Shown here: positions 119-10,066 of the stretch, piece after piece
Numbering within the stretch: the first letter of the stretch is position 1
Layout of the letters: each line of letters opens with the position of its first letter
Assembly: GCA_023391775.1 (NCBI GenBank)
Contig: JAEWAG010000289.1
Coordinates: 1 to 10,141 of the forward strand
Reading direction: 5' to 3'
Source: Pseudomonadota bacterium
Lineage (GTDB): Bacteria; Pseudomonadota; Gammaproteobacteria; Xanthomonadales; Xanthomonadaceae
Length of the DNA stretch: 10,141 nucleotides
The notes under the pieces: model-generated
Databases searched by the model: none
What the model was told of the DNA's origin: nothing
What the model saw: the letters and a program-made list of their open reading frames with translations, nothing else
Position numbers and translations under genes: made by a program

Positions 119-165
119 GCCGGCGAGCGGGCCGGCCTCGCGCGGGGCCGGGCGTCAGAACGCCC
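119..165 (-). terminator. GC-rich hairpins at the end of the receptor gene, possible terminator
   Basis: Two short hairpins lie at and just after the receptor stop codon. GGGCG (150-154) pairs with CGCCC (161-165), with the stop codon in the six-base loop. GCCGGC (119-124) pairs with GCCGGC (131-136). Neither is followed by a T-run on the minus strand, so this is not a canonical intrinsic terminator. Such hairpins are common by chance in GC-rich DNA. The rest of 54-118 holds only the upp leader, with no clear promoter. Confidence 0.2.
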
Positions 166-2536
166 AGCGCATCACCAGCTGGTAGCTGGGGCCGGCTTCC
201 TCGGTTTCCAGCTCGTACTCGTCGTGGTCGCGCTCCAGCTGGTCGGCGAGGGTATCGAACTTGTCGAAGAACTCGTCCTTAGTGGCATCCAGCAGGTTGT
301 TCGCGGACAGGCGCATGGAGAAACGGTCGCCGAAGCGCTTCTCGACGAAGGCGTCCAGCTCGCCGCCGTAGCGGATCAGCACTTCCTCGCCCAGCAGCCG
401 GGTGCGTGCGTCACTCTGCTTGCGGTAGGTGAGGCCAAAGCTGGCTGCCAGGCTGGGCAGGTCCTGGATGAAGCCGATGTTGAAGGTGCTGCGGGCCTGG
501 TCGTTGAAGCGGCGCGTGCCGCGGAAGTCATCGATCCTCGAATCGACCCAGGCGTAGTTGAGGAACACGCCGGTATTGTCCATGCCGAAGGCGGTCAGCG
601 GCGTGGACAGGTCGAACTCCGCGCCATAGACCTTGCCATCGCCCACATTGGCGGAGGTGAACAGCCAGCTGTCCGGCACGAACGGATTGGCCGCCATGGC
701 GTCCTCGGCACTGGCGTAATCGCCGTCATCGACCAGGTCGGCGATGTCGTCCTCATAGTCCTCCAGCGCCGTTTCGCTGGGCTCGCCGGTGTTGACCAGT
801 TCCACCAGGTCCTTCACGTCGCGGTAGAACAGGTTGAGCCCGACCACGCCGCGACGGCCCAGGCGGTGCTCGAAGCCCAGGTCGATGCCGTTGGCCTTCT
901 CCGGGGACAGCGCCGGATTGCCAAGGTAGTCGTTGTCGCCGTACTCGCCCTCCAGCACCGCCGGCACCAGCTCGTTGAAGTTGGGCCGCTTGAGGGTGCG
1001 CGCCAGCGAAAGTGTGATGCGGTCGGCGTCGCCCAGGTGCCAGCGGAGGTTCACCGACGGCAGCAGTTCGTCGTAGTCGCGACGCACATGGCCGGCCGCT
1101 TCGTCATCCTCCCGGTAAGAAACCTCGCCGCGGGTGGTCTCGTAGCGCAGGCCCGCTTCCCAGGCGAATACCGCGCCGCGTCCGCTGAGCATGACGTAGG
1201 GGTCGACGCGCTTCTCCTCGATCACCGAAGCCACGCTGCGATCGAGCGCGTAGTCGGCCGGAAAGCGCGGTGGCGCCTGGTCCTCGGTATCGGCTTCCCA
1301 CTCGTAGTAGCTGATGCGGCTCTCGCGCTTCTTGTTGCGCAGGTCCACGCCGAACTCCAGCTCGGCTCCGCCAGCCGGGCGCACGTGGGCGAGCGTGACG
1401 CCGGACTCGCTGTCGCGCGCGTCGATGTCCTCCGCCTCGTAGACGGTCTCGTCCCATTCGGCGCCGTCGATGCCCCAGCTCCCGTCCCAGCCGGCCGCGT
1501 CGCCGATGTAGACCTGTTCGCCCTCGGTTGAGCCTTCGTAGTTCTCGAAACGGGCATGGTCCACCAGCAGGCGGGTGTTGCCGCCGGCCATGTCGAAGCG
1601 GTACTCCAGGCCCAGGCCGTAGTTCTTCTGCTCATAAGGGTTGAAGCCTGGGACGCGCTTGTTCTCGACCTCGTCGCCGTCCACTTCCTCTTCGAACGAG
1701 ACCTCGGTGACGTCGCGGTCGGTTTGCACGTAGAAGGCGTCCGCGCTGAAGCGGCCGCTTTGGCCGACGTCCGCCACGTAGCTCAGGTTGGCCGAGTAAT
1801 CGCGTCCGTCCTTGACCTCGGTCTGGTCTTCCCAGCTGGTCTTTTCAGCCAGGTCCGGGCCGGTGAAGCGATCCGAGCGCTTGTACTTGGAGCGGTAGCG
1901 GTCCTGCACGTTAACGCCGGCCAGCAGGCGTCCGCCCAGCGCGTCCGTGGAGGTGACGGCGCCGAAGGTGGGATTCACCTCGCCGTCCTCCCAGCGGTTC
2001 ACGCCGACCCGCACGTAGCTACCGTCGAACACGTAGGCATCGCGCAGCACGATGTTGATCGCGCCGGCCACCGCGTCGCCGCTGCGGTTGGCACTGGCGC
2101 TGCGCTTGATCTCGATGTGGTCCACCATCTCCGCCGGGATGCGGTCCACGTAGAAGGAGCGGTCATCGCCGGCCCCGGGCACCTTCTTGCCGTTGATCAG
2201 CACCTGGGTGTAGCCGCCGCCCAGCCCGCGCAGCTGCACCCCGTCATATTCCATGATGTCACTGCCGACGAAGCCCACGCCCGGCACGCGCTTGAGCATG
2301 TCGCCGACGGTGTTGGGCTCGAAGCGCTGGAAGTATTCCAGGTCATAGACCAGCGTGGGTTCGATGTCCGCCGAGCGGTTGCGGTAGGCGATCTCGGCCT
2401 GGACGACCACGGCATCGAGCTGCTTCGGCTCGCCTGCCGCCACCGGTTCGGGCGCCGCGAAGGCCGCGCACGGGGGCAGCAGCAGGCTGCAGGCGAGGGC
2501 GCGTGAGAGCGAGATGGCCAGGGTATTGCGCTTCAT
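155..2536 (-). CDS. TonB-dependent outer-membrane receptor
   Basis: A 793-residue outer-membrane transporter that would use TonB-ExbBD energy to import a ligand too large or scarce for porins. A signal peptide (hydrophobic ALACSLLLPPCAAFA, about residues 13-27) precedes a TonB-box-like DAVVV at 41-45. The plug domain is about 58-166, with QLRGLGGGYTQVLINGKKV at 101-119, RIPAEMVDHIEI at 132-143 and AGAINIVLRD at 157-166. The rest is a beta-barrel ending MRWAF, with the terminal Phe used in barrel assembly. Extracellular-type loops are strongly acidic, for example residues 281-291 and about 585-610. An in-frame ATG at 2587 would add 17 residues. I chose 2536 because the signal peptide then starts MKRNT and because PHO-like repeats at 2596-2621 would otherwise leave no room for a leader. 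It is divergent from a phytase-like/phosphatase/pyrophosphatase operon, so a phosphorylated ligand is the inference. The receptor sequence alone does not show substrate. Confidence 0.9.
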   Translation of the reverse strand: MKRNTLAISLSRALACSLLLPPCAAFAAPEPVAAGEPKQLDAVVVQAEIAYRNRSADIEPTLVYDLEYFQRFEPNTVGDMLKRVPGVGFVGSDIMEYDGVQLRGLGGGYTQVLINGKKVPGAGDDRSFYVDRIPAEMVDHIEIKRSASANRSGDAVAGAINIVLRDAYVFDGSYVRVGVNRWEDGEVNPTFGAVTSTDALGGRLLAGVNVQDRYRSKYKRSDRFTGPDLAEKTSWEDQTEVKDGRDYSANLSYVADVGQSGRFSADAFYVQTDRDVTEVSFEEEVDGDEVENKRVPGFNPYEQKNYGLGLEYRFDMAGGNTRLLVDHARFENYEGSTEGEQVYIGDAAGWDGSWGIDGAEWDETVYEAEDIDARDSESGVTLAHVRPAGGAELEFGVDLRNKKRESRISYYEWEADTEDQAPPRFPADYALDRSVASVIEEKRVDPYVMLSGRGAVFAWEAGLRYETTRGEVSYREDDEAAGHVRRDYDELLPSVNLRWHLGDADRITLSLARTLKRPNFNELVPAVLEGEYGDNDYLGNPALSPEKANGIDLGFEHRLGRRGVVGLNLFYRDVKDLVELVNTGEPSETALEDYEDDIADLVDDGDYASAEDAMAANPFVPDSWLFTSANVGDGKVYGAEFDLSTPLTAFGMDNTGVFLNYAWVDSRIDDFRGTRRFNDQARSTFNIGFIQDLPSLAASFGLTYRKQSDARTRLLGEEVLIRYGGELDAFVEKRFGDRFSMRLSANNLLDATKDEFFDKFDTLADQLERDHDEYELETEEAGPSYQLVMRWAF

Positions 2537-2543
2537 CGGGGCG

Positions 2544-2568
2544 GTCCGTCCGGGGAGTGAACGGACGG
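2544..2568 (-). other. Inverted repeat in the receptor mRNA leader
   Basis: CCGTCC (2546-2551) faces GGACGG (2563-2568); in an alternative register GTCCGT (2544-2549) faces ACGGAC (2561-2566). It lies just upstream of the chosen receptor start at 2536 and could form a leader hairpin near the ribosome site. No strong Shine-Dalgarno is visible there. The role is unknown and a chance repeat is possible. Confidence 0.25.
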
Positions 2569-2595
2569 CACTGTGGTGGCTGCTCATGGCAGCGG

Positions 2596-2621
2596 TATGA
2601 CAGGTGAGGGCGCGATGACAG
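2596..2621 (-). promoter_or_regulatory. PHO-box-like direct repeats facing the receptor gene
   Basis: On the minus strand CTGTCAT (2621-2615) is followed by four bases and CCCTCAC (2610-2604), the 7+4+7 layout of a PhoB box. The resulting 18-mer agrees with the E. coli consensus (CTGTCATAAATCTGTCAC) at 12 of 18 positions. An exact third copy, CTGTCATA, follows at 2603-2596, but 7 bases after the second unit instead of 11. The array ends 59 bases before the receptor start at 2536. PhoB would bind here under phosphate limitation. This is a by-eye match, and no convincing -10 was found. Confidence 0.45.
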
Positions 2622-2641
2622 CTACGTTGCGCGACTCGGGA

Positions 2642-2659
2642 TTGTCACAATGCGGCCAT
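2642..2659 (+). promoter_or_regulatory. PHO-box-like site facing the phytase-like operon
   Basis: TTGTCACAATGCGGCCAT has the 7+4+7 spacing of a PhoB box. The first half, TGTCACA, fits well; the second, GGCCATA, agrees at 5 of 7 positions with TGTCATA. It ends 34 bases before the ATG at 2694, so it could sit at the -35 position of the operon promoter. TTGTCA (2642-2647) also resembles a sigma-70 -35, but no -10 was found at the right distance. Confidence rises from the matching repeats on the opposite strand and the phosphate-related genes. Confidence 0.4.
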
Positions 2660-2693
2660 ACGATGCCGCCCTGACCTGACTGCGGGAATCACG

Positions 2694-3836
2694 ATGAAGC
2701 TGCACCCTTCGTTTGCATTGCTGGTGTCGCTGGCGCTGGTGGCTTGCACGCCGGAGCCGGCACCCTCGCCGGCCGCTACCGTGCATGAGCGCGAGCCTGA
2801 CGAGTACGAAGACGATGACATCCTGCTGCGCGACCACGACGTCGCCCACGCGGTGGTCAAGGAGGCCTTCGTGAGCCCCGCAGCCGAGGAGGACAACATC
2901 GACTCACCCGCCAGCTGGCTGCAGGATGGCCGGCGCATGCTGGTGGCAACCGCCAAGGCGACCGACCGCCTGGTGGTGTACGACGGAGCCACCGGCCAGC
3001 GCCTGCGCGTGGTGGGTGGCAGCGGTACCGCTCCGGGCCAGCTGCAGCGGCCCAATGGCGTGGCAACCGTGGATGACCGTTTCGTGTTCGTCGTCGAGCG
3101 CGACAACCGGCGCGTACAGATGTTCGCCCTGCCCGGGTTCGAACCGCTGCTGGCTTTTGGCGAGGACCAGCTGGTGCAGCCGTACGGCCTGTGGGTGCGG
3201 CCGGTCGCAGATGGCTACGAGGTGCTGGTGAGCGATGCCTACATGGCCGGCGAGGACGCCGCAGGCGAGGATATCGTGCCGCCGCTGCCGGACCTGGGCC
3301 GCCGCTTCCACCGCTATACCCTGGCACGCGCCGATGGTGGCTGGGACGTGCAGCACGGCGGCGCCTTTGGCGACACCACGACCGCAGGTGCCATCCGCGT
3401 GCCGGAGTCGCTGTTCGGTGACGCGGACAACGACCGCCTGCTGGTGGCCGAGGAGGATGTGCATACCGGGACCCGCCTGCGCGAGTACGACCTGCAGGGC
3501 CGTTACCGTGGCCGCGACGTGGGTGCGGGCAACTACCTGGCGCAGGCCGAGGGCGTCGCGCTGATGCGCTGCGCCGATGGCGGCGGCTGGTGGGTGGGCA
3601 GTGACCAGTTCGCCGACCGCACCGTGTTCCACCTGTTCGACCGCAGGACGCTCGAGCATGTCGGGGCGTTCGCCGGCGAGGTCACTGGACTTACCGACGG
3701 CATCTGGCTGGATGAGCGTGCCGACGAGCGCTTCCCGCAGGGCGTGCTGTACGCCTCGCACCAGGACATGGCGGTGAGTGCGTTCGACTGGCGCGACATC
3801 GCGGCCGCGCTGGACCTGGCGGACTGTCCGCGATGA
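2694..3836 (+). CDS. Beta-propeller-phytase-like lipoprotein
   Basis: A 380-residue protein that would hydrolyse phosphate monoesters such as phytate at the outer membrane. The lipobox LVAC puts the lipidated Cys at 18, with Thr after it (no Asp retention signal), so outer-membrane anchoring is likely. An acidic stretch follows (about 34-43). The fold assignment comes from BPP-family landmarks in order: DNIDSPASWL (67-76; family DDPAIW), LVVYD (93-97), LLVAEED (249-255; Bacillus phytase LYIAEED), AEGVAL (285-290; family IEGLAI), LTDGIW (333-338; family DTDGI), FPQGVLYASHQD (347-358; family FPxGLFVAQDG) and FDWRDIAAAL near the end. An acidic insertion lies at about 182-200. The Asp of the family's DIEG calcium-site signature appears to be Gln284, so substrate or metal use may differ from classic phytases. 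It overlaps the next gene by ATGA, which suggests translational coupling. The family call is fairly firm; phytate as substrate is not proven. An NHL-like propeller of other function is the alternative. Confidence 0.72.
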   Translation: MKLHPSFALLVSLALVACTPEPAPSPAATVHEREPDEYEDDDILLRDHDVAHAVVKEAFVSPAAEEDNIDSPASWLQDGRRMLVATAKATDRLVVYDGATGQRLRVVGGSGTAPGQLQRPNGVATVDDRFVFVVERDNRRVQMFALPGFEPLLAFGEDQLVQPYGLWVRPVADGYEVLVSDAYMAGEDAAGEDIVPPLPDLGRRFHRYTLARADGGWDVQHGGAFGDTTTAGAIRVPESLFGDADNDRLLVAEEDVHTGTRLREYDLQGRYRGRDVGAGNYLAQAEGVALMRCADGGGWWVGSDQFADRTVFHLFDRRTLEHVGAFAGEVTGLTDGIWLDERADERFPQGVLYASHQDMAVSAFDWRDIAAALDLADCPR

Positions 3837-5212
3837 GCCGCCGTCGCGCCGCCTCCACCCTCGCGGCGCTGCTGTGCATCGCCGCCCTGCCGCTGGCTGC
3901 GCAGCAGGCTGCACGCCAGCCCGAGCCCAACGTCCGGGTTCCGGCCGGCGTGGCGCATTACGCCCCCGGCGTGTTCCCGGACCGTATCGTGGTCTCGCCG
4001 GCCGAGAACGCGGCGACCGGGCTGGCGGTGGCCTGGCGCACCGATGCCTCGGTGCAAGCGCCATGGCTGGAGATCGTGGTTGCCGGCGACTCGCCCGACC
4101 CGGGGGTGCCGCGGCGGATCCGCGCGGACAGCCGTCCGTTGTCGACCGGCAACGGCCTGGCCCACCACCACCGCGCCGAAGCCAGCGGCCTGCAGCCTGA
4201 CACCCTCTACGCCTGGCGCGTGCAGGGCGGCGGCACCTGGAGTGCCTGGCACCACACCCGCACCGCGGCGGCATCGGACCGGCCGCTGACCCTGCTGTAC
4301 TTCGGCGACACCCAGAACCGCAACGTCAGCAACGTGACCCGGGTGGTGCGCGAGGCGATGCGCCACGCGCCGGACGCGCGCCTGGCCCTGTTCGCCGGCG
4401 ACCTGGTCAGCGGTGGCGATGGCCAGGACGACATCGAGTGGGGTGAGTGGTTCGAGGCCATGGGCGCGTTGCCGACCTCCATGGCAGTGGCGCCGGCGGC
4501 CGGCAATCACGAGTACACCGAATTCCACGAGGACACGCCGCAGGAATACAAGGCACTGGGCGCGCACTGGCCGCTGGCCTTCGCCTTGCCGCGCAACGGC
4601 AGCGACGCGGCGCCGCATACCAGCTACTGGTTCGACTACCAGGGCGTGCGCGTGGCGGGGGTGGACGGGACCTCTGCGCTGGAACACGGCACCGCGGCCG
4701 CGCAGGCGCGCTGGCTGGAGCGGGTACTGGACGATGCGGGGGGGCGCTGGCGCATCGTGCTGCTGCACCAGCCGTTCCATTCGGCGGCGCGCGGTCGTGA
4801 CAATGAGGTCCTGCTCGAACATCTCATGCCGGTGGTGCGGCGCCATCGCGTGGACCTTGTCCTGCAGGGGCACGACCATGTCTATGGCCGGCGCACCGCC
4901 GGGGATGACGGGGCGCCTCCCGTGCTCACCGTCTCGGTGGCCGGCCCCAAGCAGTACCGGCTATCGCCGCGCGCGCGCGCCACCATGGCGCCGGTGGCCG
5001 AGGACACCCAGCTGTTCCAGGTATTGCGGATCGACCCGGCACGCCTGCGCTACGAGGCGCGCACGGCGACAGGGCGCCTGTACGACGCGATCGAACTGGT
5101 GCGAAGCGGTGGCCAGACCCGCCTGGTGGAGGCTGTCGACGGCCGCATCGGCCCGCGTGGGTGCCCGCGCGCGCAGACCCTGAAGGGACGCAAGGACCGG
5201 TGCTGGGAATGA
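3833..5212 (+). CDS. Exported purple-acid-phosphatase-type metallophosphoesterase
   Basis: A 459-residue exported phosphatase with a dinuclear metal centre. A signal peptide (RRR, then hydrophobic residues, cut near LAA|QQ at 23) is followed by a fibronectin-III-like N-terminal domain (about 47-145) containing GLQPDTLYAWRV, as in purple acid phosphatases. The calcineurin-like domain starts with YFGDTQ (Asp159). It continues with FAGDLVS (Asp190), GNHE (Asn225, His226), LLHQPFH (His312) and GHDHVYGR (His347, His349). All five metal/catalytic blocks are therefore present. In classical purple acid phosphatases the second block is GDxxY, whose Tyr binds Fe(III); here Ser193 takes that place, so the enzyme is probably not purple and may use other metals. 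The C-terminal tail carries Cys444 and Cys457, a possible disulfide. It overlaps the phytase-like gene upstream and the pyrophosphatase gene downstream. A phosphomonoesterase or phosphodiesterase acting on organic phosphate is likely; the exact substrate is unknown. Confidence 0.88.
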   Translation: MSRRRAASTLAALLCIAALPLAAQQAARQPEPNVRVPAGVAHYAPGVFPDRIVVSPAENAATGLAVAWRTDASVQAPWLEIVVAGDSPDPGVPRRIRADSRPLSTGNGLAHHHRAEASGLQPDTLYAWRVQGGGTWSAWHHTRTAAASDRPLTLLYFGDTQNRNVSNVTRVVREAMRHAPDARLALFAGDLVSGGDGQDDIEWGEWFEAMGALPTSMAVAPAAGNHEYTEFHEDTPQEYKALGAHWPLAFALPRNGSDAAPHTSYWFDYQGVRVAGVDGTSALEHGTAAAQARWLERVLDDAGGRWRIVLLHQPFHSAARGRDNEVLLEHLMPVVRRHRVDLVLQGHDHVYGRRTAGDDGAPPVLTVSVAGPKQYRLSPRARATMAPVAEDTQLFQVLRIDPARLRYEARTATGRLYDAIELVRSGGQTRLVEAVDGRIGPRGCPRAQTLKGRKDRCWE

Positions 5213-5904
5213 TGCCCGGCGCCCGTACACAGGCGGGCCGCATGACCCTTTCCGGCCGCCGGCGGGTTGCCCTGCTTGCCTGCCTGGTGCCGGCCGTGGC
5301 GATTGCGCAGCCACCGGCTTGCGCGAGCCATCCGTTCCACGCCGCGCAGCCGGAGGGCGCGCCGGCGGAGGCGCTGCTGGTGGTGGACCGCTTCCTGTCG
5401 ATGCCGGTGGCTTACCCGGCCAACTACGGCTCGATGCCGCGTACCCTCGCCGGCGATGGCGATCCGCTGGATGCGCTGGTGCTTACCCGCGCGCCGCTGC
5501 ATCCGGGCGCGCTGGTGCGGTTCCGGCCGGTGGGGGTGCTGCGCATGCACGATCGCGGGGAGGAGGACGCAAAGATCATCGGCGTGCCGGTGGATGGCGT
5601 GGATCCGACGTGGGCCGCGGTGGCGACCATCGCCGACCTGCCCGCGGCCGAGCGCGAGCGCATCGAGGCCTTCTTCCGGGTTTACAAGGACCTTCCGGCA
5701 GGCAGCAGCCAGGTGCGCCTGGCCGGCTGGGGCGACGCGGCCGAGGCCCGGGCGGTCATCGCCCGCGCCCTGCAGCGGCATCGCGGGACGTGGTGTCTCA
5801 GGCCGCGGCGGCCTGCTCGCGGCGCGGGCCTTCGCGAAGGGCGCGGCCGACCATGGATACCAGCAGGTCCAGCTCCGCCTCGCTCATGGCGAAGTGCGGG
5901 GTGA
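5209..5904 (+). CDS. Exported family I inorganic pyrophosphatase, N-terminally divergent
   Basis: It would split pyrophosphate into two phosphates, here outside the cytoplasm. Family I landmarks are clear (numbering from 5209): VVDRFLSMPVAYPANYGSMP (58-77, with Arg61, Tyr69 and Tyr73), the DGDPLD metal motif (83-88), RPVGVLRMHDRGEEDAKIIG (Asp115, Asp120, Lys122) and FFRVYKDLP (Tyr159, Lys160). The region before DRF, which in E. coli carries Glu20, Lys29 and Glu31, is replaced by a signal peptide (RRRVALLACLVPAVAIA|QPP) and a short unrelated segment. The start at 5209 overlaps the upstream stop by ATGA. An internal ATG at 5242 has a nearby AGGCGGG and gives a more compact signal peptide, so either start is possible. 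The recognisable core ends near residue 185; the last ~46 residues are Arg/Pro/Gly-rich, and residues ~197-231 overlap the convergent aminotransferase gene in antisense. Family membership is firm; full activity is uncertain. Confidence 0.85.
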   Translation: MMPGARTQAGRMTLSGRRRVALLACLVPAVAIAQPPACASHPFHAAQPEGAPAEALLVVDRFLSMPVAYPANYGSMPRTLAGDGDPLDALVLTRAPLHPGALVRFRPVGVLRMHDRGEEDAKIIGVPVDGVDPTWAAVATIADLPAAERERIEAFFRVYKDLPAGSSQVRLAGWGDAAEARAVIARALQRHRGTWCLRPRRPARGAGLREGRGRPWIPAGPAPPRSWRSAG

Positions 5905-7294
5905 AGCGCAGCGAGTTCTCGCCGCCGTGGATCACGTTGACCCCGTGCATGCGCAGCCATTCCTCGGTGGAGCCAGCGCCGTAGCACTTGAACTGCGGGG
6001 CCAGCTCGCAGGAGAACAGCAGACCGGTGCCCTGGACCTTGGTGATCAGCCCGCCCAGTTCCGCCTTGAGCGCCTCGAGCTTCTGCAGCGCCTGGGCGCC
6101 GCGCGAGCGGATGTTCTGCCGCACCTGCGGCGTCAGCAGGCCCAGGGTGGCGCACGCCACGTCCAGCGCACGCGGGTTGGCGGTCATGGTGTTGCCGTAC
6201 ACGCCCTTGCGGTACAGGCCGGCCGCATGCGCGCTCACCGCCAGCACCGACAGCGGGAACTGGGCGGCATTGAGCGCCTTGGAATAGGTTTCCATGTCCG
6301 GCGGCTCCACGCCCTCGAACCCGGGATAGTCCACCAGCGACAGCACGCCATGGACGCGCAGCCCGGCCTGGATCGAATCGACCAGTAGCAGGCTGCCGTG
6401 GGCGCGGGTCAGCTCGCGCGCGGCGCGGTAGAAGTCCACCGGCACGGCGCGGCCGGGGTCGCCTTCGCCCATCACCGGCTCCAGGAACACCGCCTCGATG
6501 AACCAGCCATAGGCCTCGGCATCGATGAAGGCCTGGCGCAGCGCGGACACGTCATACGGCGCGATCGCGATCACCGAATCCTCGTCGCGGTAGCTGGCCA
6601 GGTGCTGGCGGTAGGTACGGCGGGTGGAGTCGGAATACAGGGCCGGGCGGTCGGTGCGGCCGTGGAAGCTGCCCTTGACCACCAGGCGCTTGATCTTCGC
6701 GCCCGCGTGCGCGCCGTCCGGGTCGGTCTGCAGCTTGGCGTTGATGTCGACGATGCGGGCGGCCAGGCCGACCGCCTCGGAGCCGGAGTTCAGGCACATG
6801 AAACGCTCGAACGGGCAGCCGCCGCGGGTGTGCCCGATCTCCGCGCGCAGGGCGCGGATGAAGCGGCGCTGCGAGGGGCTGGGGGTCATGATGTTGGCCA
6901 TCACCTGTGGCGCGGCAGCCGCCGCCAGCACCTCGGCCGGGGCATGACCGAAGCCGAGCATGCCGTAGCCGCCGGCGTCGTACAGCACCGCACCCTTGAG
7001 GGTGACCACCCAGGGACCGCGCGCGGCCAGGGCCACGTACGGGGTGACCGCATCGTCGGCGTAGAAGTTGACGAAGCCTTCCTGGAGGGCGGCGATCTGT
7101 GCCCCTTCGTCCAGGTCGAGCAGGTCGGCCAGCTCGGCGCGCTGGGCGGCATAGGCATCGGCGGCCGCGGCGATGGCCGACTCCAGGGCCGGATGCGTCG
7201 CCGCCAGGCGCTCGACGAGGGCGTCATCCAGGCCGGTGGTGAGGCGGGTGCCGGCGTGGCTGCGCAGCGGGGCGAGGGGGGCGAGAACGGACAT
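5798..7294 (-). CDS. Class III PLP-dependent aminotransferase, substrate unknown
   Basis: A 498-residue fold-type I transaminase of class III, the group of ornithine, 4-aminobutyrate and other omega-amino-acid enzymes. Visible family landmarks are NSGSEAVGLAAR (169-180, cofactor phosphate loop), KGSFHGRT (207-214), LEPVMGEGD (271-279), VDSIQAG (305-311; Asp306 for the pyridine nitrogen), YSKAL (Lys339, the Schiff-base lysine) and YGNTMTANP (366-374). The usual DExQTGxGRTG segment reads DSIQAGLRVHG, so it is not a textbook ornithine or GABA enzyme. The N-terminal ~85 residues precede the first typical block (VTLKGAVLYDAGGYGMLGFG). The start is well supported: GGAGG lies 6 bases before the ATG (7301-7305). 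The C-terminus ends in an Ala run encoded by a palindrome. It is divergent from an Lrp/AsnC regulator that probably controls it and might respond to its substrate. No signal peptide is seen, so it is cytoplasmic. Confidence 0.85.
   Translation of the reverse strand: MSVLAPLAPLRSHAGTRLTTGLDDALVERLAATHPALESAIAAAADAYAAQRAELADLLDLDEGAQIAALQEGFVNFYADDAVTPYVALAARGPWVVTLKGAVLYDAGGYGMLGFGHAPAEVLAAAAAPQVMANIMTPSPSQRRFIRALRAEIGHTRGGCPFERFMCLNSGSEAVGLAARIVDINAKLQTDPDGAHAGAKIKRLVVKGSFHGRTDRPALYSDSTRRTYRQHLASYRDEDSVIAIAPYDVSALRQAFIDAEAYGWFIEAVFLEPVMGEGDPGRAVPVDFYRAARELTRAHGSLLLVDSIQAGLRVHGVLSLVDYPGFEGVEPPDMETYSKALNAAQFPLSVLAVSAHAAGLYRKGVYGNTMTANPRALDVACATLGLLTPQVRQNIRSRGAQALQKLEALKAELGGLITKVQGTGLLFSCELAPQFKCYGAGSTEEWLRMHGVNVIHGGENSLRFTPHFAMSEAELDLLVSMVGRALREGPRREQAAAA
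5800..5814. terminator. 15-bp GC palindrome at the pyrophosphatase/aminotransferase convergence
   Basis: AGGCCGC and GCGGCCT flank a single central G at 5807, giving a perfect inverted repeat just inside the end of the aminotransferase gene. It could form a stem of 5-6 pairs on either transcript. No T-run follows, and it encodes the enzyme's terminal Ala codons, so it may simply reflect GCG/GCC codon use. Weak evidence for a terminator. Confidence 0.2.
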
Positions 7295-9012: not shown

Positions 9013-9029
9013 TCCGCAGCCCGGATCAG
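9004..9029. terminator. Two interleaved inverted repeats between queA and epmB
   Basis: CCGGGCT (9004-9010) pairs with AGCCCGG (9018-9024). CTGATCC (9009-9015) pairs with GGATCAG (9023-9029). Each is a perfect 7-bp stem with a 7-base loop. The arms alternate and share two bases at each overlap, so the stems compete or form a pseudoknot-like fold. The block covers both stop codons (queA 9010-9012, epmB 9026-9028). It has the position expected of a bidirectional terminator, but there is no T-run on either side. Confidence 0.5.
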
Positions 9030-10066
9030 AGCGGGCGCTTGCCCGGGTCGCCCTGCACCTCGCGCACCAGCTTCGGCACCAGGTAGCCGGACAGGCGTGC
9101 GGCCAGCTGCCGGTGCAGTTCGCGGGCCTGGTCGTCGCTGACCTCGAAGTGCGCGGTGCCATGCACCCGGTCCAGCTGGTGCAGGTAATAGGGCAGCACG
9201 CCGGCGGCAAAGCCGCGCTCGCTGAGTTCGGCCAGTGCCTGCACGCTGTCGTTGACCCCGCGCAGCAGCACGGCCTGGTTGAGCAGGGTCGCCCCGGTGC
9301 CGCGCAGGCGGGCCATGGCCGCGTCCACCGTCGCGTCGAACTCGTTGGCGTGGTTGGCGTGGACCACGAAGGTCACCGGCCACGGCAGCCCGCGCAGCCA
9401 CTGCAGCAGCGCCTCGTCCACGCGCTCCGGCAGCACCACCGGCAGGCGGCTGTGGATGCGCAGGCGACGGATATGCGGGATAGCGGCCAGCTGGGCGGTC
9501 AGTTCCGCCAGCTTGGGGGTGGCCAGGGACAGCGGGTCGCCGCCGGAAAGGATCACCTCGTCGATGCCCGGATCGGCGGTGATGGATGCCACCGCCCCGG
9601 ACCAGGCATCGCGTGCCGCGGTCTCTTCCGCGTACGGGAAGTGCCGCCGAAAGCAGTAGCGGCAGTGCACCGCGCAGCTGCCGGTGGTCACCAGCAGGGC
9701 GCGGCCGCGGTACTTCTGGATCACGCCGTCGGCCTTCTTGGCCGCGCCGTCGCCGACCGCGTCCAGGCCGAAGCCCGGCACCAGGCGTTCCTCGGCATCG
9801 ACCGGCAACACCTGGCGCAGCAGCGGGTCGTGCAGGTCGCCGTGGCGCATCCGCGCGATGAAGCCGCGTGGCACCCGCAGCGGGAACCGGGCGGCGGCCG
9901 CGTCCGATATGCCCGCCGCGACCGCGTCCAGGCCTAGCATGGCCAGCAGCTGTCGCGGATCGCGCACGGCCTCGCGCCACAGGCGCTGCCAGCCGGCAGC
10001 GGCGGGGACGGGGGCCGGCGCCGGGACAAGGTCCGGCTGCATGGGCGTAGGGGCTGCAGGTATCAT
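9026..10066 (-). CDS. epmB: EF-P--(R)-beta-lysylation protein EpmB (lysine 2,3-aminomutase-like)
   Basis: EpmB is a radical-SAM, PLP-dependent enzyme that converts L-alpha-lysine to (R)-beta-lysine; EpmA then attaches this to elongation factor P, which relieves ribosome stalling at polyproline. The 346 residues align closely with E. coli EpmB (YjeK, 342 aa): LRVPRGFIARM (63-73), DPLLRQVLP (80-88), KYRGRALLVTTGSCAVHCRYCFRR (118-141) with the CxxxCxxC cluster ligands Cys131, Cys135 and Cys138, HFPYAEE (142-148), ILSGGDPLSL (172-181), IPHIRRLRIHSRLP, NHANEFD, TLLNQAVLLRGVND, LPYYLHQLD, and SGYLVPKLVRE, whose Lys332 is at the family's PLP lysine. The Ala/Pro-rich first 25 residues are poorly conserved. 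The ATG at 10042 is an alternative start; neither has a strong Shine-Dalgarno. In related genomes efp often lies divergently next door; here it would lie beyond the right edge and is not seen. Confidence 0.95.
   Translation of the reverse strand: MIPAAPTPMQPDLVPAPAPVPAAAGWQRLWREAVRDPRQLLAMLGLDAVAAGISDAAAARFPLRVPRGFIARMRHGDLHDPLLRQVLPVDAEERLVPGFGLDAVGDGAAKKADGVIQKYRGRALLVTTGSCAVHCRYCFRRHFPYAEETAARDAWSGAVASITADPGIDEVILSGGDPLSLATPKLAELTAQLAAIPHIRRLRIHSRLPVVLPERVDEALLQWLRGLPWPVTFVVHANHANEFDATVDAAMARLRGTGATLLNQAVLLRGVNDSVQALAELSERGFAAGVLPYYLHQLDRVHGTAHFEVSDDQARELHRQLAARLSGYLVPKLVREVQGDPGKRPL

What the first reader, a model, noticed from the sequence alone, without database searches (positions are those of the whole stretch)
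155..5904. Divergent four-gene exported organophosphate-scavenging locus
A TonB-dependent receptor faces an overlapping operon of phytase-like lipoprotein, purple-acid-phosphatase-type phosphatase and secreted pyrophosphatase. All four have export signals, and the three enzymes act on phosphate esters or anhydrides. Together they look like an uptake-and-strip pathway: import of a phosphorylated polyanion or its metal complex, stepwise dephosphorylation, and hydrolysis of pyrophosphate. Beta-propeller phytases near TonB receptors are, as I recall, known in proteobacteria. The pairing with both a metallophosphoesterase and an exported pyrophosphatase in one coupled operon is the part that may be undescribed. 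Pyrophosphate release hints that substrates could include inositol pyrophosphates, nucleotides or polyphosphate as well as phytate.
Basis: partly seen in the sequence, partly recalled or inferred. Interest (0 to 1): 0.75.

Follow-up and report, generated by a model that had tools for sequence, protein, structure and literature searches.

The report
Phosphate-starvation receptor–phytase gene cassette
A group of neighbouring genes in a relative of Xanthomonas, probably switched on when phosphate is scarce, pairs an outer-membrane import receptor with phytase-like and phosphatase-like exported proteins; it is a conserved variant of a known phosphate-scavenging theme, and one of its enzymes looks broken in this particular genome.

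Summary
The four genes are real and in place: a TonB-dependent receptor (155-2536, -) and an overlapping +-strand trio: propeller lipoprotein (2694-3836), PAP-fold metallophosphoesterase (3833-5212), exported family I pyrophosphatase (5209-5904). The arrangement is conserved: of 43 fetched loci 25 have the divergent receptor, 19 the phosphatase, 20 the pyrophosphatase, 8 all four. New support for the phosphate reading: Pho boxes in 22 of 25 divergent intergenic regions (p<=0.05; permuted motifs 0-7 of 25) and upstream of the other receptor type in 9 of 12, but before two neighbouring genes in only 1 of 17 and 1 of 16. Corrections: the 'phytase' is a divergent beta-propeller-phytase relative with a partly changed active site; the 'purple acid phosphatase' lacks the purple-making tyrosine; this window's pyrophosphatase lacks the segment with the EIPxG...KYE motif that all 19 compared relatives keep, so it is probably inactive here. 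Receptor plus propeller is the core; the other two are often-missing accessories. Receptor-phytase pairing under phosphate control is already published in other bacteria. New variant of a known kind.

The parts
155..2536 (-). TonB-dependent receptor (type A), 793 aa from the MKRNTLA start; the ORF list's longer start is at 2587
   Evidence: Pfam plug PF07715 1.5e-14 and barrel PF00593 5e-26; TIGR01782 below its cut-off; divergent homologue in 25 of 43 loci
2586..2603 (-). Pho-box-like element reading towards the receptor; best in the window
   Evidence: 14 of 18 consensus positions; none of 370 other 150-nt stretches as good; p=0.001
2604..2621 (-). second, weaker Pho-box-like element abutting the first
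   Evidence: 12 of 18 positions
2642..2659 (+). weaker Pho-box-like element reading towards the propeller operon; its TGTCACA...CAT form recurs at the same distance in Pseudoxanthomonas- and Stenotrophomonas-type relatives
   Evidence: 12 of 18 positions in the window; sequences of relatives
2694..3836 (+). Six-bladed propeller lipoprotein, divergent beta-propeller-phytase relative (publicly named 'phytase')
3833..5212 (+). Exported PAP-fold metallophosphoesterase (N-terminal PF16656 domain plus calcineurin-like domain)
5209..5904 (+). Exported family I inorganic pyrophosphatase with an internal deletion of about 20 codons (junction near 5373-5388); alternative start 5242
5798..7294 (-). Class III aminotransferase, convergent neighbour with 107-nt overlap; conserved landmark, not part of the system
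   Evidence: Pho-box score upstream in relatives at p<=0.05 in only 1 of 17

Best explanation
A PhoB-controlled outer-membrane organophosphate-scavenging cassette. When phosphate is scarce, PhoB binds boxes in the intergenic region and switches on both the receptor and the propeller operon. The lipidated propeller, a divergent beta-propeller phytase on a flexible linker of about 30 residues, binds or hydrolyses a phosphorylated, probably polyanionic and metal-bound substrate such as phytate at the outer membrane. The TonB-dependent receptor is its dedicated partner and imports the substrate or a partly dephosphorylated product. The PAP-fold phosphoesterase removes further phosphate outside the cytoplasm, and in relatives the exported pyrophosphatase cleaves pyrophosphate. 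Phosphate then enters by Pst. Shown here: gene conservation and linkage, Pho boxes, predicted folds, receptor-propeller co-variation. Inferred: PhoB dependence, surface location, substrate, import, order of steps. In this genome the pyrophosphatase step is probably lost.
Confidence: 0.7

Rival explanations
1. The propeller is not an enzyme but a substrate-binding cap on the receptor, as BtuG is for BtuB (recalled) or SusD for SusC; the phosphoesterase does the hydrolysis inside.
For: Invariant lipobox cysteine; low-confidence linker (block means 50-60 up to residue 50); receptor type tracks propeller clade; divergent receptor and propeller without PAP or PPA in 14 of 43 loci, though in two of these (L019, L021) the contig ends just after the propeller; changed site residues.
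Against: Nine phytase-site residues, six of them acidic, are invariant in 43 of 43, more than a mere cap would seem to need. A secreted Xanthomonas putative phytase, PhyA, that is probably this protein is reported to aid growth on phytate (secondary reports).
Confidence: 0.25
2. The locus imports a metal or siderophore-like complex and phosphate control is indirect; the enzymes only happen to be near.
For: Receptor plug resembles Cir and BtuB at low level; TonB receptors often carry metal complexes (general knowledge).
Against: Pho boxes at both receptor types with controls; phosphatase and exported pyrophosphatase almost confined to propeller neighbours in the sample.
Confidence: 0.08
3. Main substrate is nucleotides, nucleic-acid fragments, inositol pyrophosphates or polyphosphate rather than phytate; the exported pyrophosphatase clears released pyrophosphate.
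For: Exported pyrophosphatase lies beside the propeller at 33 of 37 places; PAP-type enzymes have wide substrate ranges (general knowledge).
Against: Propeller resembles phytases end to end; pyrophosphatase is absent or damaged in many members, this one included.
Confidence: 0.2

Closest known systems
Low-phosphate-induced TonB transporter beside 3-phytase, Flavobacterium johnsoniae Fjoh_1368/Fjoh_1367 (PMC8115612, passages seen)
   Same: TonB-dependent transporter next to a PF02333 phytase, both raised under phosphate depletion; uptake of organic phosphate proposed there
   Different: Different phylum; no PAP-fold phosphoesterase or exported pyrophosphatase beside it in the passages seen; here the propeller is a divergent subfamily
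PhyA of Xanthomonas oryzae pv. oryzae (Chatterjee et al. 2003; seen only as cited in PMC5735085 and PMC9403785, passages; original not read)
   Different: Not shown directly (no X. oryzae row was listed); the two Xanthomonas-like loci read have a co-directional receptor and no exported pyrophosphatase
Canonical beta-propeller phytases: Bacillus 1poo/3amr, and the two-domain proteins (frames of 691-767 aa) in 5 of 16 relatives' genomes
   Same: Fold, end-to-end register, nine site residues
   Different: About 22% identity; several site residues replaced; lipoprotein paired with a receptor
Plant purple acid phosphatases and wheat purple acid phytase (4dhl, 6git)
   Different: Tyrosine ligand replaced by invariant serine
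TonB transporter next to phytase in Citromicrobium (PMC3400609, passages seen)
   Same: Gene adjacency; phytic acid proposed as substrate
   Different: Alphaproteobacterium; no further enzymes named in the passages seen
ElpS lipoprotein and TonB receptor CC0171 of Caulobacter (PMC2996285, passages seen)
   Same: Phosphate-starvation lipoprotein next to, and co-occurring with, a TonB receptor
   Different: There the receptor was reported constitutive, and ElpS seemed not to be a phosphatase itself

Membership tests
Beta-propeller phytase (PF02333) | Six-bladed propeller of the Bacillus phytase type over the whole domain | tested here: met
Beta-propeller phytase (PF02333) | Match to the PF02333 profile | tested here: inconclusive
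   22 of 30 family members match at E<=1, best 9.5e-10 (as many match NHL); the window's own protein does not
Beta-propeller phytase (PF02333) | Calcium and phosphate ligands of the active site (residue roles recalled) | tested here: inconclusive
   D55, K76, Y159, E211, E227, D228, E260, Q279, D314 invariant in 43 of 43; E43, D56, K77 (mostly), D258, K179 replaced (K179 also in the relatives' canonical enzymes), D308 variable; R122 register differs
Beta-propeller phytase (PF02333) | Calcium-dependent phytate hydrolysis | not testable with these tools
   needs assay
Purple acid phosphatase | Two-domain PAP fold | tested here: met
Purple acid phosphatase | Tyrosine Fe(III) ligand (Y167 of kidney bean PAP; role recalled) | tested here: not met
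   serine S193, invariant in 19 of 19. Filed as PAP-fold metallophosphoesterase only
Purple acid phosphatase | Other metal or catalytic residues (Asp, Asp, Asn-His, three His; roles recalled) | tested here: met
   D159, D190, N225, H226, H312, H347, H349 invariant in 19 of 19
Family I inorganic pyrophosphatase | PF00719 core | tested here: met
   6.4e-42
Family I inorganic pyrophosphatase | N-terminal EIPxG...KYE catalytic segment (role recalled) | tested here: not met
   absent in the window, present in 19 of 19 compared relatives and in P0122. Homologue, probably an inactive copy
TonB-dependent receptor | Plug plus beta-barrel domains | tested here: met
   PF07715, PF00593
Pho regulon member | Pho box in the promoter region | tested here: met
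Pho regulon member | PhoB-dependent induction at low phosphate | not testable with these tools
   needs RNA or reporter data
SusCD/BtuBG-like capped transporter | Physical complex of receptor and surface lipoprotein | not testable with these tools
   no complex prediction offered

The most novel reading that the evidence does not exclude
A family-specific capped transporter: the divergent phytase propeller sits as a catalytic lid on its own TonB-dependent receptor (a BtuBG- or SusCD-like complex in which the lid is an enzyme), trimming a phosphorylated polyanion at the pore mouth, with a plug-in PAP-fold phosphatase and exported pyrophosphatase that lineages gain and lose. In Xanthomonas the same lid would be the phytate-growth factor PhyA.
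Probability: 0.22. Interest if true: 0.68.

Novelty: new variant of a known kind. Interest (0 to 1): 0.45.

Why it matters
The propeller gene is in 159 of 198 sampled genomes of this family, and named members include Xanthomonas, Stenotrophomonas, Lysobacter and Pseudoxanthomonas. Its TonB partner, its Pho boxes and its accessory phosphatases were not tied together in the paper listings and passages I saw. It gives a concrete test of whether TonB transporters import phytate-like organic phosphate, which the Flavobacterium and Caulobacter papers propose in more general form.

Tried and rejected

Literature: one search found 0 papers, and only unrelated ones by title. In the listings I saw no title or abstract start that describes the receptor-propeller-phosphatase-pyrophosphatase combination; subscription papers are not held. 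Of eleven papers I saw passages only; the X. campestris receptor survey PMC1790865 has no 'phytase' in its held main text.

Rows dropped: L041 (frameshifted in the script's ORF call); BPP_L071 was read in a wrong frame and is ignored; only the first 85 propeller rows were entered, so adjacency counts are lower bounds, and in G063 the phosphoesterase lies upstream of the propeller; L035 skipped for N; loci without the divergent receptor skipped. labels L010 as lacking the phosphatase, which is wrong (present); the PAP change count carries that error.

Full report
What is there. The window holds a TonB-dependent receptor on the minus strand and, divergent from it, three overlapping plus-strand genes: a propeller lipoprotein, a metallophosphoesterase and a family I pyrophosphatase. 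Downstream lie a convergent class III aminotransferase, an Lrp/AsnC regulator, QueA and a radical SAM protein. No whole genome is held for the window; the nearest named relatives are Pseudoxanthomonas. The receptor most likely starts at 2536, where the conserved signal sequence of relatives begins, because the longer ORF start overlaps the promoter element.

Conservation. One scan of genome contigs gave 43 loci with the propeller. The divergent receptor is present in 25 of 43, the phosphoesterase in 19, the pyrophosphatase in 20 and all four in 8; several contigs are cut. In 14 of 43 the divergent receptor and propeller stand without the other two, although in L019 and L021 the contig ends just after the propeller. 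The phosphoesterase starts within 13 nt of the propeller's end in 16 of 18 loci and the pyrophosphatase within 13 nt of the phosphoesterase's end in 9 of 16, with starts chosen by script (L041 left out of the first count). In 198 genomes of the family of L002's genome the propeller profile hits 159. In 398 of the phylum 67 have any hit, but only seven genomes have strong full-length ones, six of which are also in the family sample. The phosphoesterase profile hits 46 of 198 genomes at E<=1e-60. The exported pyrophosphatase stands apart from other pyrophosphatases in score (37 places at 311 bits or more, the next at 190). By coordinates, the phosphoesterase lies next to a propeller at 44 of 48 places (42 of 46 genomes) and the pyrophosphatase at 33 of 37; of 85 high-scoring propellers 26 have both downstream, 15 the phosphoesterase only, 7 the pyrophosphatase only and 37 neither (lower-scoring propellers were not entered). 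So receptor plus propeller looks like the core and the other two like accessories that are often missing or damaged: the phosphoesterase is split or fragmentary in G202, G107 and G188, and the pyrophosphatase match has a stop inside in G087 and G011.

Receptor and propeller go together. On a tree of 43 propellers two main clades appear. The clade with the window (25 rows) has the divergent receptor type in 23, one other divergent receptor and one cut contig. The other clade (18 rows) has a different, co-directional receptor in 13, the divergent type in 2, others in 2 and one cut contig. Receptor type needs 6 changes on the tree, the phosphoesterase and pyrophosphatase labels 9 each, with one phosphoesterase label known to be wrong. 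Both receptor types occur beside the same aminotransferase landmark.

Phosphate control. The divergent intergenic region carries Pho-box-like elements towards both sides. Against dinucleotide shuffles, 22 of 25 regions, the window included, score at p<=0.05 (17 at p<=0.01); twenty permuted versions of the consensus gave 0-7 of 25. The window's region beats all 370 other 150-nt stretches sampled in the window. Upstream of the co-directional receptor type 9 of 12 regions score at p<=0.05 (twelve permuted versions 0-3 of 12), whereas regions upstream of the neighbouring aminotransferase and regulator genes do so in 1 of 17 and 1 of 16. Relatives share ancestry, so these are not independent events, but the controls share it too. 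PhoB dependence is inferred, not shown.

The phosphoesterase. Fold and seven ligand or catalytic residues are those of plant purple acid phosphatases, wheat purple acid phytase among the matches (the model's active-site loops are poor). The tyrosine that makes those enzymes purple is an invariant serine, so it should be called PAP-fold, not purple acid phosphatase. No NCBIfam model reaches its cut-off.

The pyrophosphatase. The window's copy lacks about 20 codons that carry the EIPxG...KYE motif, kept by 19 of 19 compared relatives and by a 91%-identical sister protein. The gap lies where relatives have similar short sequences on both sides, clearest in L039, as expected for a slip between repeats. 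The same shortened protein is listed on three contigs, which speaks mildly against a single assembly error. Activity is probably lost in this strain. L010 has a different internal deletion.

Known or new. In print: a low-phosphate-induced TonB transporter beside a phytase in Flavobacterium, with the proposal that such transporters take up organic phosphate (PMC8115612, passages); TonB receptors and a phytase in the Caulobacter PhoB regulon (PMC11208175, passages); adjacency in Citromicrobium (PMC3400609, passages); a phosphate-starvation lipoprotein next to a TonB receptor in Caulobacter (PMC2996285, passages); and PhyA of X. oryzae, reported to aid growth on phytate (cited in PMC5735085 and PMC9403785, passages; original not read). 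What I did not see in the listings is the whole cassette, the link of receptor type to propeller clade, or its Pho boxes. The finding is thus a real, conserved variant of a known theme.

Noticed in passing
5798-5904: The pyrophosphatase frame runs 107 nt into the convergent aminotransferase gene; the long C-terminal tail is shared with the 91%-identical sister protein P0122 but is longer than in the other relatives aligned.
   Followed up: partly
L019 (record titled Tolypothrix campylonemoides): A cyanobacterial assembly carries a Lysobacteraceae-type receptor-propeller locus, most likely a contaminating contig.
   Followed up: no
L016 14622-15581 and L017 16641-17675: Arenimonas loci have a second propeller paralogue a few kb from the first.
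   Followed up: no
9026-10066: Radical SAM protein that looks like a lysine 2,3-aminomutase/EpmB relative by eye (Pfam PF04055 1.4e-07; name recalled).
   Followed up: no
L026 and L020: Propellers of the second clade sit beside the divergent receptor type, exceptions to the receptor-propeller pairing.
   Followed up: no
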